A stretch of DNA of 64,000 nucleotides, taken from contig NZ_AP018439.1 in assembly GCF_009937955.1 (NCBI RefSeq), positions 4,154,001-4,218,000 of the forward strand, in the 5' to 3' direction. The translations under genes and the position numbers were made by a program. The notes beneath the pieces are model-generated. The model did no database searches. It was not told where the DNA came from and worked only from the letters and a program-made list of their open reading frames with translations. The first letter of the stretch is position 1; every line of letters starts with the position of its first letter. Positions 46,138 to 51,938 of the stretch are shown piece after piece. The DNA comes from Undibacterium sp. KW1 (GTDB lineage: Bacteria; Pseudomonadota; Gammaproteobacteria; Burkholderiales; Burkholderiaceae_D).

Positions 46138-47796
46138 ATGTCAGCAATCATCCAGGCCATCTTTATCAATCCGCCCATGGCAATTGCCCGCCTGGGTGGC
46201 AGCAGTACGCCGCAAGAGGCATTCCAGTGGATACAAAATCCGGCACCGCGCGCCAATGCAGAAACCGTCATTGCCCCCGACTGGTCACTGCGCATCTTGC
46301 CTGACAGTTCGGTCGAGCCGTATATGCCGACTGAGCTCAGCCTGCGTGATGGAGAACTGATCAGGCCCGTTGCGCCCTTCTTTGAAATATGGGCAAGAAT
46401 GGGCGAGCCCGGCTCGGCAGAAAGCAGCTGGGCAGATGCTCCGCTGACCCCAGCCCTGTTGAAGCGCTTCAAGATACCGCTTGCCAACTTGTCACTGGAA
46501 GTGAATGCGCAAAACCACAAGGCGGCCCGGCGTGCCTCCAACCCGCTGCTACGTTTTGGCACCTATCCACCTGTGGTAGTAAGGGCAGACAATCATGCCA
46601 ACACCCCTTTGCTAGCTGTCAGCCCGCCCACAGCAGCCAACCCCATGATACCGGCGGGGCGCAATATCCCGCTAGGCAGCATACAGTTCTTGCTCAGCAA
46701 ACCCCAGCCCAGCAATGGTCAGCCCTGGCTGGCAGCAGTCAATGTAGAAGTATTTCGCTTTCGCTTTACCCCAGCGCGGGGTCGCGTATATGGCCCGCCA
46801 GATACCAGCCAGGATCACCAGCCACCCACAGGTGCTCCGGCACCACCGGTACTGGAGCCTTTCAACTTCCTCAACCCTGATGCAGGCTGGCGCGGTACCA
46901 CGGGCACGCAGGCATCTATCGTCAGACCCTGGGATACCTATGATGGCGCACATGATGGCAACGACAATGATGCCAATGACGAGCTGTCGCTAGGTGTCGT
47001 CGATGATACCTGCGAAGCCAGGGTCAAAGCCACGTTGCGCTTCCCTGGGGCGACCGGGCGAACCATCAGCAGCACCGCCAATGTCTTTGTTGCCCCACCC
47101 GACTTTGCCCCGGACCGTAGGCCTTTCCTGTCCATGGCGGATGAAATCAATGACCGCAGTGCCGACATCGCCCAGCGCAATGCCGCCATGAGCACAGCCG
47201 AGCGCGAGCGCTGGGTAGAAGATCTGTTCGAGCGCGCTTATGAAACCCTGAGCCTGCTCAACATCGATTACTACCGCGAACTAAGGGCCATGCGCTTGCC
47301 CGCCGGTGCACGGCGTCCCCAGCCCATCCCCGGTGACAGCATGCGCCTGCCACTCCGGGCATTTGGTGCCAGTGACCCTTTGCGTAATCCCGATTTCGCG
47401 CTATCCAATGGCAATGCCGATGATCCCCTGCCACTGACCAGCCATGCTCGTTCGCGCCACCGCTACCTGTCTGACTTGCAGGCCCTGCATGATTTTGTAC
47501 AGTTGCACCCCACCCGGCTGAAAGAACTGATACGCAAGAGTTTTCACCTGAGATCACCAGAAACAGCCAATGCCACCAGCATGCAGATGCCGCCACTGAT
47601 GCGCAACTCGAATGCGCTGCCGCTGACGCTGAGTACCTGGCAATATGATCTGCTGATGAGCTGGGTAGATGCGATCGTCCAGACCCCCGTTACCTCACCA
47701 CTGGGGCGTTCTGCCATTGTCGCCAGGCGGGCCGATGAAAGGCTGGATGAAATCCTCGCAGGCATGGGCACCGCTGCTCCTGGCGGCCAGCCATGA
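46138..47796 (+). CDS. LodA/GoxA N-terminal-like protein
   Basis: A 552-residue cytoplasmic-looking protein. Its opening INPPMAIARLGGSSTP resembles the start of LodA/GoxA quinone-cofactor oxidases (xxYPPIGIARVGxS). Further resemblance is seen in FRFTPARGRVYGPP and the following DDxxDxxVxATV-like stretch (NDELSLGVVDDTCEARVKATL). The C-terminal half is helical (SMADEINDRS... AERERWVEDLFERAYETLSLLNIDYYREL) and lacks the Cys/Trp region where LodA forms its cysteine tryptophylquinone. There is only one Cys (residue 292). It is the first gene of the four-gene operon and overlaps the radical SAM gene by ATGA. It could be the catalytic or scaffold partner; this is inference. Confidence 0.7.
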   Translation: MSAIIQAIFINPPMAIARLGGSSTPQEAFQWIQNPAPRANAETVIAPDWSLRILPDSSVEPYMPTELSLRDGELIRPVAPFFEIWARMGEPGSAESSWADAPLTPALLKRFKIPLANLSLEVNAQNHKAARRASNPLLRFGTYPPVVVRADNHANTPLLAVSPPTAANPMIPAGRNIPLGSIQFLLSKPQPSNGQPWLAAVNVEVFRFRFTPARGRVYGPPDTSQDHQPPTGAPAPPVLEPFNFLNPDAGWRGTTGTQASIVRPWDTYDGAHDGNDNDANDELSLGVVDDTCEARVKATLRFPGATGRTISSTANVFVAPPDFAPDRRPFLSMADEINDRSADIAQRNAAMSTAERERWVEDLFERAYETLSLLNIDYYRELRAMRLPAGARRPQPIPGDSMRLPLRAFGASDPLRNPDFALSNGNADDPLPLTSHARSRHRYLSDLQALHDFVQLHPTRLKELIRKSFHLRSPETANATSMQMPPLMRNSNALPLTLSTWQYDLLMSWVDAIVQTPVTSPLGRSAIVARRADERLDEILAGMGTAAPGGQP

Positions 47797-49124
47797 GTCT
47801 GTTACCGCTCCCGTCTGCGGCGCAGGCTCCTGGCAGTTATCGCTTCAGGTCCAGCCTGGGTCAGCATTTGCTGGTGGTACAGCACAGCCAGATTTATGAC
47901 CTGCCCGAACAGGAAACTGATGCTGATATCAGCCTCGATCATGCGCTCAGCCAGATGCTGGCACGCACCCTGGATAATGAAGTCAGCCTCGACACACTAA
48001 GCCTGCCTACTGTACAAAGCCTGTCACTGAACGTCAGTTCCAGTTGCAACCTCGGTTGCAGCTATTGCTATGCCAGTCAGGGTAATTTTGAGGGCAAGCA
48101 AAGCAAGGGCATGGACTGGGAACAGGCGCGCAGCAGCATAGACCGCCTGCTGGCAGGCGCCAATCCACAAGCGCCACTGACCCTGGGCTTCATAGGCGGC
48201 GAGCCCTTTGTCAACCGCGCACTGATACATCAGTGCGTGCACTACAGTGCTCAGCTGGCACAACAGCGGCAACTGGACTTGCGCTATTCCGTCACCACCA
48301 ATGGCACCTTGCTGCGGCCAGAAGATCACGAACTGCTGAGGCGCCATCGCTTTGCAGTCACCGTCAGCATTGATGGCGGCAGTGTCGTCCATAACCGCCA
48401 GCGCCCCATGCTCAATGGCAAGCGCGATTCCTTTGCTGCAGTCATCGAACACTGCCAGCCTTTGCTCGACCAACCCGGCATGTGCAAACTTGCGGCCCGC
48501 GCCACGGCCAACAGCCTCTCGCTTGACCTGGGCCAGCAGTTTGATGCCATTGCTGCACTGGGCTTTCAGGACATAGGCTTTTCGCCTTTGCGCAGCGGCT
48601 CGGCACTGGCATTGCAGGAGCAAGACTGGCCAGTATATGAGCAAGCCATGATCAGCCTGGCCAGCCGAGAACTGCAACGCGCATTGCAGGGGCAACAGAT
48701 ACGCCAGAGTAATTTCGCCACAGCCTTGAAGCAATTGCATGTCGGTGCCAGCAGCCCTTACCCCTGCGGTGCAGGTGGCGGTTATTTTTCTGTTGCCAGC
48801 GATGGCGACTGGTATGCCTGCCATCGTGCGATCGGCAATCATGATTACAGGCTGGGTGACCGGCATACGCTGGATGCGCCCAAACGCCTGCATTTTTTGC
48901 AGGAACGCCACGTCCATGCCCAGACCGACTGCCACACTTGCTGGGCACGCTACCTGTGTTCAGGCGGCTGTCACCAGGAAAAAGCCAGCCGCAGCGAGGC
49001 CTCTTGCGACTATATCCGTCACTGGCTGACTTTTTGCCTGCAGTCTTATTGTGAACTCAGCCAGGCCAGGCCAGATTATTTTACCCATTGCCGGCCATCC
49101 CCACGTGCCAGCAACCCAGCATAA
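47793..49124 (+). CDS. Radical SAM/SPASM maturase, PeaB(QhpD)/SCIFF type
   Basis: A 443-residue radical SAM enzyme. The [4Fe-4S] motif CxxxCxxC is CNLGCSYC (Cys85, 89, 92), and FIGGEP (134-138) binds SAM. The C-terminal SPASM domain has PCGAGGGYFSVASDGDWYACHR (Cys325, Cys343), the hallmark of the quinohemoprotein amine dehydrogenase maturase and SCIFF-maturase clade, followed by CHTCWARYLCSGGC (380-393) and Cys405, giving ligands for auxiliary clusters. Family members install thioether cross-links in peptides. The overlap with the upstream gene (ATGA) and the adjacent Cys/Trp-rich protein suggest that one of them is the substrate. Confidence 0.9.
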   Translation: MSLLPLPSAAQAPGSYRFRSSLGQHLLVVQHSQIYDLPEQETDADISLDHALSQMLARTLDNEVSLDTLSLPTVQSLSLNVSSSCNLGCSYCYASQGNFEGKQSKGMDWEQARSSIDRLLAGANPQAPLTLGFIGGEPFVNRALIHQCVHYSAQLAQQRQLDLRYSVTTNGTLLRPEDHELLRRHRFAVTVSIDGGSVVHNRQRPMLNGKRDSFAAVIEHCQPLLDQPGMCKLAARATANSLSLDLGQQFDAIAALGFQDIGFSPLRSGSALALQEQDWPVYEQAMISLASRELQRALQGQQIRQSNFATALKQLHVGASSPYPCGAGGGYFSVASDGDWYACHRAIGNHDYRLGDRHTLDAPKRLHFLQERHVHAQTDCHTCWARYLCSGGCHQEKASRSEASCDYIRHWLTFCLQSYCELSQARPDYFTHCRPSPRASNPA

Positions 49125-49146
49125 ACTGGAACATAAGGAACATAAA

Positions 49147-50871
49147 ATGAGCCTTCCCGACATCATCAAACTGATTCCTCGCAATGCTGCCGCCCTGCGC
49201 CGCACACAAACTGCTGACAGCGCCATTACGCCGGTTGCTGGCAATCCCGTCTCTACCCGTCTGGAGTCTGGCGTCGGTAATTGTTATCCCGGACTGGAAG
49301 CTGACTTGCGTAATCTGGAACGACGTTTTTTCCCCTTCCTTGAAGTCGATATCGCCAATACAGAAATACGCATTGTGGCCGTCGATAGTACTGCGGTCAC
49401 GGCAGCTGCCCTACCCGATGCAGTCGCGCAAAAATACCGCGACCTGGCGCTGGGCATCAGCCAGAATCAGCCCTGCATCATTAGCAGGATCAACGGTAAT
49501 TTCGGGCCCTTTGGTAATCATGATCTGAACATCGCTCAACTGCGCCGACCGAGCGCAACTAGCACTAGTACCAGCGCCAGCACCAGCACTGCGCCCCCGG
49601 ACGCCTGGACCGCAGTACGCCTGCTGCCAGAAAATACGGCCATCAGCCTGACGATACGGCTGGGTACCCGCAGCATCAGCCTGGAGGGCAGGCGCTCGAC
49701 CTACCTGAGTGGCACAGGCAGCCTGGCTGCCATGTTTGAACCTGGTGAGCTCACGCAATCCCTGTGCAGCCCCTGGACCCATGATTTTCGTGACTGTGGC
49801 TGCTTTTACTGGGCCAGCAATCATCCCGACATTGCCCAGCCACCAACGCCAGATGCCAGCGAGCCCGGCGTACCCTGGCTGGCAGCAGTGCCATGGGAGA
49901 GGCTGGACCGCAGCATAGGCAGCACGCCACCCTCACCCGCCAATACAACTCCCCCGGAAGAACTGGGCCACTATGCAATCAACCATCAATGGCAAAGCCT
50001 GAACTTTGTGCTGGAAGGCCGCGAAACCATACGCCCCTACAAACCAGGCAAGTTCACTGCAGTTCCACTGGCATCAAGAGAAGAATTACAGTTATACCTG
50101 CGTTATGCCGCCGGGCTGGAACTGGCAGCGATACAGGAATACCTGTCGGCGGCCTATTCGCTGCGCAGCCCGGCCAGCCTGGCAGCAGGCAGCTTGCGCA
50201 ACCGGGTCGCAGCCAGCTTTGCTGAACTCATGCGCATCGCCTATGGAGAAATGCGCCACCTGCGGGCTGTCAATAATGTACTGCAATCACTGAACGGTCC
50301 TGCCTATACACCGGCTTTGCAAGTAGCCAAAACAATTCCTGATGCCGCAGGCAATCAAAGCCCGGTACGTGCCAGGATACTCGACCGGCAAGCCATACTG
50401 GATTTCCTGGCGCTGGAACAGAGCAACCAGAGTGCAGATGCTTTATATGCACGCATCTACGCCACTCTGCGCCAGCCTGGCTTTGGCAGTGATGCAGACT
50501 GCCAGAGCATACGTTACATCATGGCCGAGGGGCAGGACCACTTTGAAACCTTTGAGAACATGCAGGTATGGCTGCAAGGTTTCCAGCCCAGCCAGTATCT
50601 GCACCAGAATTTGGTACAGGCACCTGCCGGCAACAGCGCCTACAAGGCACTGCAAACAGCTTACCGCAACCTGCTGGAAAAACTGTATGCCGGTTACCAG
50701 GCAGGCATGCCCCAGGGGGCGGTGGATATTAACTCGGCGCGTAGCGACATGGTGGCAGCCAACGGTTTTGGCAGCGCTGCCAGAGCCGTGATCAACGCGG
50801 GTTTCCTTCTGTCTTTCGATACCATCAGCGACACTCGTTTTACCTCTGTCGAGCCGCCACCAAGATTATGA
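49147..50871 (+). CDS. Cys/Trp-rich protein with C-terminal ferritin-like domain
   Basis: A 574-residue protein. Residues 37-70 (RLESGVGNCYPGLEADLRN...) and 205-225 (LCSPWTHDFRDCGCFYWASN) resemble the C-terminal half of LodA-type oxidases, with Cys207, Trp210, Cys217, Cys219 and Trp222 as possible cross-link or quinone residues. From about 313 a ferritin-like diiron domain follows: ELAAIQEYLSA (Glu325), GEMRHL (Glu368, His371) and AEGQDHFETF (Glu461, His465). It resembles the ferritin-like domain of VioB-type proteins (PF12902). The start at 49147 is set by AAGGAAC. It overlaps the flavoprotein gene by ATGA. The likely substrate of the maturases is inferred, not shown. Confidence 0.75.
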   Translation: MSLPDIIKLIPRNAAALRRTQTADSAITPVAGNPVSTRLESGVGNCYPGLEADLRNLERRFFPFLEVDIANTEIRIVAVDSTAVTAAALPDAVAQKYRDLALGISQNQPCIISRINGNFGPFGNHDLNIAQLRRPSATSTSTSASTSTAPPDAWTAVRLLPENTAISLTIRLGTRSISLEGRRSTYLSGTGSLAAMFEPGELTQSLCSPWTHDFRDCGCFYWASNHPDIAQPPTPDASEPGVPWLAAVPWERLDRSIGSTPPSPANTTPPEELGHYAINHQWQSLNFVLEGRETIRPYKPGKFTAVPLASREELQLYLRYAAGLELAAIQEYLSAAYSLRSPASLAAGSLRNRVAASFAELMRIAYGEMRHLRAVNNVLQSLNGPAYTPALQVAKTIPDAAGNQSPVRARILDRQAILDFLALEQSNQSADALYARIYATLRQPGFGSDADCQSIRYIMAEGQDHFETFENMQVWLQGFQPSQYLHQNLVQAPAGNSAYKALQTAYRNLLEKLYAGYQAGMPQGAVDINSARSDMVAANGFGSAARAVINAGFLLSFDTISDTRFTSVEPPPRL

Positions 50872-51938
50872 CGCATTACCGTGTTGCAGTGCTTGGCAAT
50901 GGCCCGGTTGGCATACTGGCTGCCTTGTGTGCAGCCAGGCAAGGACACGGCCCTGTGTTATTACTCGCCGCAGACCCGCCTGCCAGTGTTGATGCTGAAG
51001 GTGGCGGCTACCGCATTGAGGCTGTCCCTGTCAGCCTGCTGGCATTGCTGCTCGAATATGGTATTCACCCTCACCTGATCGGGGCCGGGCAGACGCATGC
51101 AGTCAGGCAGATACAGTGGGATAGCAAAGCCAGCATGTCCCTGCCCACCCCCAGGACCGTACACATACACCGCCCGGCACTGGAGCAGGCCCTGTGGCAA
51201 AAGTTATTGCAGCAACCGCGCATCCACCTGCACCTGGGCGAACAAAGCCTGCAATTGCATGATGCCGGTGCCCATGGCGCTGATAGTGACCATGGTGACA
51301 ACTGGCACGCCGACCTGTTAATTGATGCCAGTGGCCGCGCCGCCAGGACCGCCAGCAGCATAGACAAATCGCCGCAACCCTGGGTAGCCCGCCTGTTCAC
51401 ACTGGCTGGCAACACAAGGCCGTCCGGAAGTTTTCAATCTCATTTCCATTCTCACTTCAAGCTGGCAGCGCTACCCGAGGGTTATGTGTATAGCCTGGCT
51501 ACGCCCGAGGTACAGAATGTGGTTTTTGTCGGGCGCGGCAAGGCAGTCAAAGGCAGTGCAGAAGAATTGCAGCAACTCTTGCAGAGCACTCAGGCTGACT
51601 GGGTACTGCAAGGCTTGCCTCAGTTGACAGAATTTCATAGCGGCATGGCCCATCCGGTGTCGCTGCAATGGGCCACATCTGAGCGCAGCGTGCTAATCGG
51701 TGATGCGGCACTGGCGCGTGACATTCTGTCGTCCCAGGGTTTGTCCTGTGGCTTGTCAGAAGCACTGTGTGTAGCTGAAATGGGCACGCCACAGGCCAGG
51801 GCAAATTTTCAGCAAAGGCAAACACAACAACGGCAATTGCACGCCACGGCATTGCTGAACCAGATCAGGAGCTGCCTGTATGGCATGGAGACTGCGTGGC
51901 AAGACTATGCGCAATTTATTATGCGGGCACGCACATAA
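50868..51938 (+). CDS. LodB/QhpG-like FAD-dependent oxidoreductase
   Basis: A 356-residue flavoprotein. The N-terminal GNGPVG (10-15) is a Rossmann GxGxxG, HRPALEQALWQKL fits the NAD(P)H/FAD helix of flavin monooxygenases, and SVLIGDAALARDILSSQGLSCGLSEAL is the second FAD motif in the form seen in LodB, QhpG and tryptophan-halogenase relatives. In lysine oxidase and QHNDH biogenesis such proteins hydroxylate the Trp of the quinone cofactor. It is the last gene of the four-gene operon. No transmembrane segment is seen. Confidence 0.85.
   Translation: MTHYRVAVLGNGPVGILAALCAARQGHGPVLLLAADPPASVDAEGGGYRIEAVPVSLLALLLEYGIHPHLIGAGQTHAVRQIQWDSKASMSLPTPRTVHIHRPALEQALWQKLLQQPRIHLHLGEQSLQLHDAGAHGADSDHGDNWHADLLIDASGRAARTASSIDKSPQPWVARLFTLAGNTRPSGSFQSHFHSHFKLAALPEGYVYSLATPEVQNVVFVGRGKAVKGSAEELQQLLQSTQADWVLQGLPQLTEFHSGMAHPVSLQWATSERSVLIGDAALARDILSSQGLSCGLSEALCVAEMGTPQARANFQQRQTQQRQLHATALLNQIRSCLYGMETAWQDYAQFIMRART

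What the first reader, a model, noticed from the sequence alone, without database searches (positions are those of the whole stretch)
46138..51938. Four-gene operon mixing LodA-like, QhpD-like, ferritin-like and LodB-like parts
Seen: four plus-strand genes joined by ATGA overlaps or short gaps encode a LodA N-terminus-like protein, a radical SAM/SPASM enzyme with the PCGAG...CHR signature of PeaB/QhpD and SCIFF maturases, a Cys/Trp-rich protein with a ferritin-like domain, and a LodB/QhpG-like flavoprotein. Known: LodA/GoxA cofactor formation needs only the flavoprotein, while QHNDH uses a radical SAM enzyme plus a flavoprotein on a small heme-partnered subunit. Inference: this set, with a diiron-type domain and no heme subunit, may be an undescribed protein-derived cofactor or cross-linking system.
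Basis: partly seen in the sequence, partly recalled or inferred. Interest (0 to 1): 0.92.

Follow-up and report, generated by a model that had tools for sequence, protein, structure and literature searches.

The report
Split quinone oxidase with radical maturation
Four neighbouring bacterial genes appear to make a two-part enzyme that builds its own quinone cofactor from a cysteine and a tryptophan, combining the body of one known enzyme family with the assembly machinery of another, so it may be a missing link between the two.

The parts
46138..47796 (+). Gene 1: N-terminal half of a LodA/GoxA-type oxidase (552 aa)
47793..49124 (+). Gene 2: radical SAM/SPASM thioether maturase nearest QhpD/PeaB (443 aa)
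   Evidence: TIGR03906 253 bits (cut-off 453 not met), PapB 239, SCIFF maturase 203; CNLGCSYC, PCGAG, SPASM motifs.
49147..50871 (+). Gene 3: CTQ-bearing LodA C-terminal half fused to a ferritin-like domain (574 aa)
   Evidence: LodA_C 18.3 bits (below cut-off 25) and PF12902 45.1 bits; hhalign to LodA: fused relatives P 2.1e-5, core of fused plus standalone relatives P 1.1e-10.
49147..49281 (+). Gene 3 residues 1-45: leader-like N-terminal segment, KLIPRNAAALR
   Evidence: Motif [ILMV]x[PASE]xNxxA in 118/120 fused, 113/120 standalone and 6/8 QhpC leaders; 2-3% in shuffles; motif chosen after looking.
49282..49299 (+). C46-YPGL-E51: tentative counterpart of the QhpC C7-E16 thioether
   Evidence: C46 and E51 120/120 in the fused set; 7 of 120 standalone relatives have Ser and L006 has Phe. 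The C7-E16 pairing in QhpC is recalled.
49741..49830 (+). CTQ core P199-D228: C207-x5-D213-x3-C217-x-C219-xx-W222-x5-D228
   Evidence: The six named residues are 120/120 except D213 (119/120, one Asn; the 120 include the window protein). C217/W222 align with LodA C516/W581 and QhpC C37/W43; C207-D213 and C219-D228 with QhpC C27-D33 (pairing recalled) and C41-D49.
50062..50820 (+). Ferritin-like domain, residues 306-558, probable diiron site
50868..51938 (+). Gene 4: FAD monooxygenase-like CTQ maturase nearest QhpG (356 aa)
   Evidence: QhpG 86.8 bits (cut-off 240 not met), GoxB 35.8, LodB 31.6; GNGPVG dinucleotide-binding motif.

Best explanation
The operon encodes a split LodA-family oxidase. 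Gene 3 is made with a leader-like N-terminus; the QhpD-like radical SAM enzyme (gene 2) stitches Cys-to-carboxylate thioethers in its cofactor loop (C207-D213 and C219-D228, perhaps C46-E51). The QhpG-like flavoprotein (gene 4) then hydroxylates W222, which couples to C217 to give CTQ. The modified chain pairs with gene 1, the other half of the LodA fold, to form an amine or amino-acid oxidase. The fused diiron-type ferritin-like domain probably deals with O2, H2O2 or the imine product. Shown: gene order, homologies, conserved residues. Inferred: every chemical step, the pairing of the halves, the substrate and the role of the ferritin-like domain.
For: Complementary halves: gene 1 covers LodA 2-424; gene 3's LodA-like part begins near LodA 440 (read by eye from the letters) and is statistically supported over the C-terminal core. 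CTQ residues: LodA D512/C516/W581 align with D213/C217/W222, invariant or nearly so in the 120 fused relatives listed. Thioether Cys: both C207 and C219 present in 120/120 fused and 120/120 standalone relatives listed; in 18 of 18 canonical LodA genes there is no Cys at the C207 position and none between the CTQ Cys and the Trp motif. Maturases: QhpD is the top model for gene 2 and for 4 of 4 other split-system radical SAM enzymes scanned. Standalone-form flavoproteins pass the curated QhpG cut-off (280 and 287 vs 240; 2 of 2 scanned). In the flavoprotein tree 17 LodB-type rows lie on one side (93/94), QhpG and split systems on the other. QhpC vs LodA core: hhalign P 4.7e-7, 0 of 300 column shuffles reach the score. 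Conservation: radical SAM, C-half and N-half genes together in 18 of 18 loci, with the N-half seen only in part in L015 and L017; a flavoprotein in 17 of 18.
Against: No chemistry was observed. QhpC vs split C-half alone is weak (6 of 300 shuffles as good; P 0.036 and 0.082), so the link runs through LodA. The QhpC model shows weak hits in 4 of 4 standalone C-halves (E 0.03-0.07) but in none of 3 fused-form proteins scanned. C219 is 2 residues from C217 where QhpC has 4, so the C219-D228 register is not exact. The cofactor region of gene 3 is modelled at pLDDT under 50 and its fold search showed only ferritins among good matches. Gene 1 has no Pfam hit; genes 2 and 4 miss the QhpD and QhpG cut-offs, and PapB scores nearly as high as QhpD. 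L005 has no flavoprotein detected in 19.7 kb and L010's is on the other strand. The first pair (C46) is not universal. In L015 only the second part of the N-half was matched.
Confidence: 0.75

Rival explanations
1. The radical SAM enzyme crosslinks gene 3 only to stabilise a metalloenzyme; no CTQ forms, and the ferritin-like diiron domain is the catalytic centre, as in VioB-like chemistry.
For: E325, E368, H371, H465 invariant in 120 of 120; VioB is the best NCBIfam model for gene 3, though weak (17.6 bits, cut-off 1250), and for L007's separate ferritin-like protein (55.7 bits).
Against: C217 and W222 are as invariant as those residues; the standalone C-half exists without any fused ferritin domain; no ferritin-like gene matching L007's was detected in the fetched stretch of L006; an N-half accompanies it in 18 of 18 loci and a flavoprotein in 17 of 18.
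Confidence: 0.1
2. CTQ forms LodA-style with the flavoprotein alone, and the radical SAM enzyme makes a different bond (for example Cys-Trp, C-C) or acts on another peptide.
For: Gene 2 misses the QhpD cut-off and scores nearly as high to PapB; the SPASM group is chemically diverse (general knowledge); C217-C219 spacing differs from QhpC.
Against: QhpD and PapB both make Cys-Asp or Cys-Glu thioethers (PMC11002830 passages); both extra Cys go with the split systems that carry the radical SAM gene and are absent in 18 of 18 LodA genes; no other candidate peptide ORF of 90 aa or more stands out in the window operon (shorter ORFs not examined).
Confidence: 0.12
3. Decayed or accidental gene cluster without function.
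For: Uncommon in sampled genomes: the fused form in 3 of 147 relatives, own genome included.
Against: All four frames open, many relatives with invariant cofactor residues, gene order kept across Pseudomonadota, Cyanobacteriota and Actinomycetota.
Confidence: 0.02

Closest known systems
LodA/GoxA CTQ oxidases with LodB/GoxB
   Same: Both halves of the fold; CTQ Cys/Trp/Asp; an adjacent FAD maturase; in some loci a nearby ferritin-like gene (3 of 18 LodA loci here; fungal loci in PMC4417212 passages).
   Different: One polypeptide there, two here; no QhpD-type radical SAM gene in the fetched stretches of 18 LodA loci: the only radical SAM hits were a GeoRSP/PqqE-type gene in L035 and an HxsB gene in L063. 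No Cys at the C207 and C219 positions (0 of 18).
Quinohemoprotein amine dehydrogenase (QhpABC with QhpD, QhpG, QhpE)
   Same: QhpD-like radical SAM gene immediately before the CTQ subunit gene; QhpG-like flavoprotein; Cys-Asp/Glu pairs; leader-like N-terminus.
   Different: No heme alpha or beta-propeller subunit and no subtilisin-like QhpE among the window operon's four genes; CTQ chain about 300 aa plus a ferritin-like domain rather than about 80 aa; LodA N-half partner instead.
Ranthipeptide/SCIFF maturases (PapB, SCIFF maturase)
   Same: High-scoring radical SAM/SPASM relatives.
   Different: Substrate here is part of a large enzyme, not a small peptide (inferred).
PF12902 ferritin-like proteins (CC_0557, VioB)
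   Same: Fold and probable diiron ligands.
   Different: Fused behind a CTQ domain.

Membership tests
LodA/GoxA family | Cys and Trp of CTQ (LodA C516, W581) conserved | tested here: met
   C217 and W222, 120/120; LodA numbering read.
LodA/GoxA family | Curated LodA_N / LodA_C scores | tested here: not met
   Gene 1: none; gene 3: 18.3 vs 25. Met by relatives L014 N-half (32.0 vs 26.3) and L008 C-half (25.1 vs 25).
LodA/GoxA family | Single-chain enzyme | tested here: not met
   Two separate ORFs with the radical SAM gene between.
LodA/GoxA family | Fold of N-terminal part | tested here: met
LodA/GoxA family | Fold of C-terminal part | tested here: inconclusive
   Cofactor region under pLDDT 50; good matches were ferritins only.
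QHNDH | QhpC (QH_gamma) model | tested here: not met
   No hit for gene 3 at E<=1 and none in the own genome at E<=0.001; weak E 0.03-0.07 in 4 of 4 standalone C-halves.
QHNDH | Heme alpha and beta-propeller subunits in the operon | tested here: not met
   Not among the four genes at 46138-51938; not searched genome-wide.
QHNDH | QhpD equivalog cut-off | tested here: not met
   253 vs 453; four relatives 255-336.
QHNDH | QhpG equivalog cut-off | tested here: not met
   86.8 vs 240; fused-form relatives 56-98; standalone-form relatives pass, 280 and 287.
QHNDH | Three Cys-Asp/Glu thioether pairs | tested here: inconclusive
   Residues in place for two pairs (one with shifted spacing) and tentatively a third; bonds not seen.
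PF12902 ferritin-like | Curated score | tested here: met
   45.1 vs 22.3 bits; conserved Glu/His.
CTQ enzymes | Presence of the quinone | not testable with these tools
   Needs spectroscopy or mass spectrometry.

The most novel reading that the evidence does not exclude
LodA-type oxidases and QHNDH, described in 2021 as generating the cofactor 'convergently', descend from one CTQ domain. The split, thioether-stapled LodA systems are the intermediate: leader, QhpD-type and QhpG-type maturation as in QHNDH, body as in LodA. Fusing the halves went with losing the radical SAM step, or the reverse; QhpC is a stripped-down CTQ domain. In the fused form the diiron domain would act directly on the oxidase's O2, peroxide or imine.
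Probability: 0.55. Interest if true: 0.85.

Novelty: new variant of a known kind. Interest (0 to 1): 0.74.

Why it matters
If right, this adds a third CTQ-enzyme architecture, found in over a thousand protein clusters, most of which (among those listed) carry no functional name. It makes the origin of CTQ testable: why some CTQ enzymes need a radical SAM enzyme and others only a flavoprotein would reduce to whether the cofactor loop is stapled by thioethers or held by the rest of a single-chain fold. It also offers a radical SAM enzyme that modifies part of a large enzyme, and a natural fusion of a quinone oxidase with a diiron-type domain.

Tried and rejected
W282 as the CTQ Trp: the C217-W282 spacing (65) equals LodA C516-W581, which first looked decisive; the LodA alignment places W581 in YWWPPQ after a long insertion, so W222 is the counterpart and the spacing is coincidence. 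Direct PDB sequence searches with genes 1 and 3 found no LodA; the gene 1 profile found GoxA only at E 0.6-0.7; the gene 3 profile found only a ferritin; the standalone C-half profile found LodA at E 0.012. hhalign of full-length QhpC and split alignments gave P 0.036 and 0.082. Promoter scan: 2 found, 3.0 expected; terminator scan: 9 found, 5.9 (sd 2.6) expected; not used. The Pfam-accession literature search held 27 papers, 20 listed, none relevant by title. Radical SAM tree outgroups had very long branches and fell inside the groups, so it is not rooted; the L063 outgroup is an HxsB.

Rows left out: alignments A1 and A2 use 30 of 120 listed relatives each plus the window protein. Motif counts use the best 120 listed of 1014 and of 1613; the 120 fused ones include the window protein. 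The hhalign core set kept 118 of 120 fused, 120 of 120 standalone and 7 of 8 LodA rows; QhpC had 10 rows. Plasmid hits opened: 10 of 19. The flavoprotein tree leaves out L005, L009, L017, L035, L040 and L045; the radical SAM tree leaves out L017. L018 has the same values as L002 and was counted once.

Full report
WHAT IS THERE. The window is G000:C1:4154001-4218000 of a 6.69 Mb genome; the closest named proteins are from Undibacterium. Four + strand genes at 46138-51938 are joined by ATGA overlaps or a 22-base gap.

WHICH RESIDUES. LodA's CTQ is C516 and W581 (PMC4417212; passages and one section read). The LodA letters printed put D512 and C516 in PWQADFFNC and W581 as the second W of YWWPPQ. 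QhpC has three Cys-to-Asp/Glu thioethers, one of them C41-D49, and CTQ from C37 and W43 (PMC7876137; passages and Discussion read); the other two pairs, C7-E16 and C27-D33, are recalled and fit the QhpC letters. Gene 3 reads LC207SPWTHD213FRDC217GC219FYW222ASNHPD228. So C217/W222 correspond to the CTQ pair, C207-D213 to C27-D33, and C219-D228 to C41-D49 (spacing off by one, and C219 nearer to C217 by two). C46-x-PGLE51 resembles QhpC C7...PGWE16; it is 120/120 in the fused form but Ser in 7 of 120 standalone relatives and Phe in L006.

THE KEY CONTRAST. In 18 canonical LodA genes the residue at the C207 position is Ala, Gly or Ser, and no Cys lies between the CTQ Cys and the Trp motif; in the listed split relatives both Cys are present in 120 of 120 fused and 120 of 120 standalone proteins. 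The 18 split loci all have a QhpD-like radical SAM gene. Among the 18 LodA loci, stretches of 8-12 kb, only L035 and L063 gave a radical SAM hit: L035's best models are GeoRSP and PqqE-type, and L063's is an HxsB above its cut-off.

SECOND ARCHITECTURE. The fused form was seen in L001-L005, L010-L013, L015 and L017. In L015 only the second part of the N-half matched, in a gene that also carries PF12902; in L017 only the end of the N-half lay inside the fetched stretch. A flavoprotein was found in 17 of 18 loci: not in L005, and in L010 on the other strand.

MATURASES. QhpD is the best model for gene 2 and for 4 of 4 other split radical SAM enzymes scanned, never above its cut-off. The tree separates the QhpD rows from the split rows (95/100), but its two outgroups are long and fall inside the groups. 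Standalone flavoproteins pass the QhpG cut-off (2 of 2); fused-form ones do not (gene 4 and 3 of 3 others). The flavoprotein tree puts all 17 LodB-type rows on one side (93/94); it is unrooted and L011 has a very long branch.

ONE ORIGIN OF CTQ? QhpC against the LodA core: score 40.1, shuffled mean 11.5, maximum 27.9 in 300. QhpC against the split core alone is weak: 19.0, 6 of 300. QhpC against all together: 29.6, 0 of 300. The 2021 paper notes the conserved Asp and calls the strategies convergent; these data argue for a shared CTQ domain. The split systems then combine a LodA body with QHNDH-type maturation. A leader-like motif is shared but was defined after inspection.

HOW IT LIKELY WORKS. 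See best explanation. Homology, residue conservation and gene order are shown; thioethers, CTQ, subunit pairing, oxidase activity and the diiron role are inferred. The amine/amino-acid substrate is by analogy to LodA and GoxA only.

NOVELTY. Searches for LodA with radical SAM, ferritin-like, QHNDH and related terms showed no description of a split or radical-SAM-associated LodA (listings and abstract openings seen, lists capped; passages or sections read in three papers). Among listed standalone C-halves a few bear the name 'LodA/GoxA family' and others 'hypothetical protein' or none. The library has no preprints and few subscription papers.

Noticed in passing
L037:2089-6278 (G000:C1 about 1136088-1140277): The same genome also has a canonical 1020-aa LodA-type gene followed by a LodB-like flavoprotein, without the extra Cys.
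   Followed up: partly
L041 and L017 (genome G027): A same-genus genome carries both the fused and the standalone split systems.
   Followed up: partly
L015:4031-5665: In Nostoc sp. UHCC 0302 the gene matching the second part of the N-half also carries a PF12902 ferritin-like domain.
   Followed up: no
L035:3668-6384: Mesorhizobium huakuii canonical LodA is in two overlapping ORFs where Rhizobium L034 has one; a recent independent split or a frameshift.
   Followed up: no
L012:10869-12413; L007:1-133: C25-family cysteine peptidase genes beside two split operons, a possible leader protease.
   Followed up: no
L006:8266-10273; L014:8624-10096; L034 and L035 5' ends: Multicopper oxidase or tyrosinase genes lie beside several rhizobial LodA and split-LodA loci.
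   Followed up: no
L063:529-2046: One canonical LodA locus lies a few kb from an HxsB-type (His-Xaa-Ser system) radical SAM gene.
   Followed up: partly
L049: Novosphingobium QhpC/QhpD pair is divergent: the QhpC reads CYVTCFWPVQVPD and the QhpD SPASM has the WAR form seen in split systems; a possible basal QHNDH.
   Followed up: no
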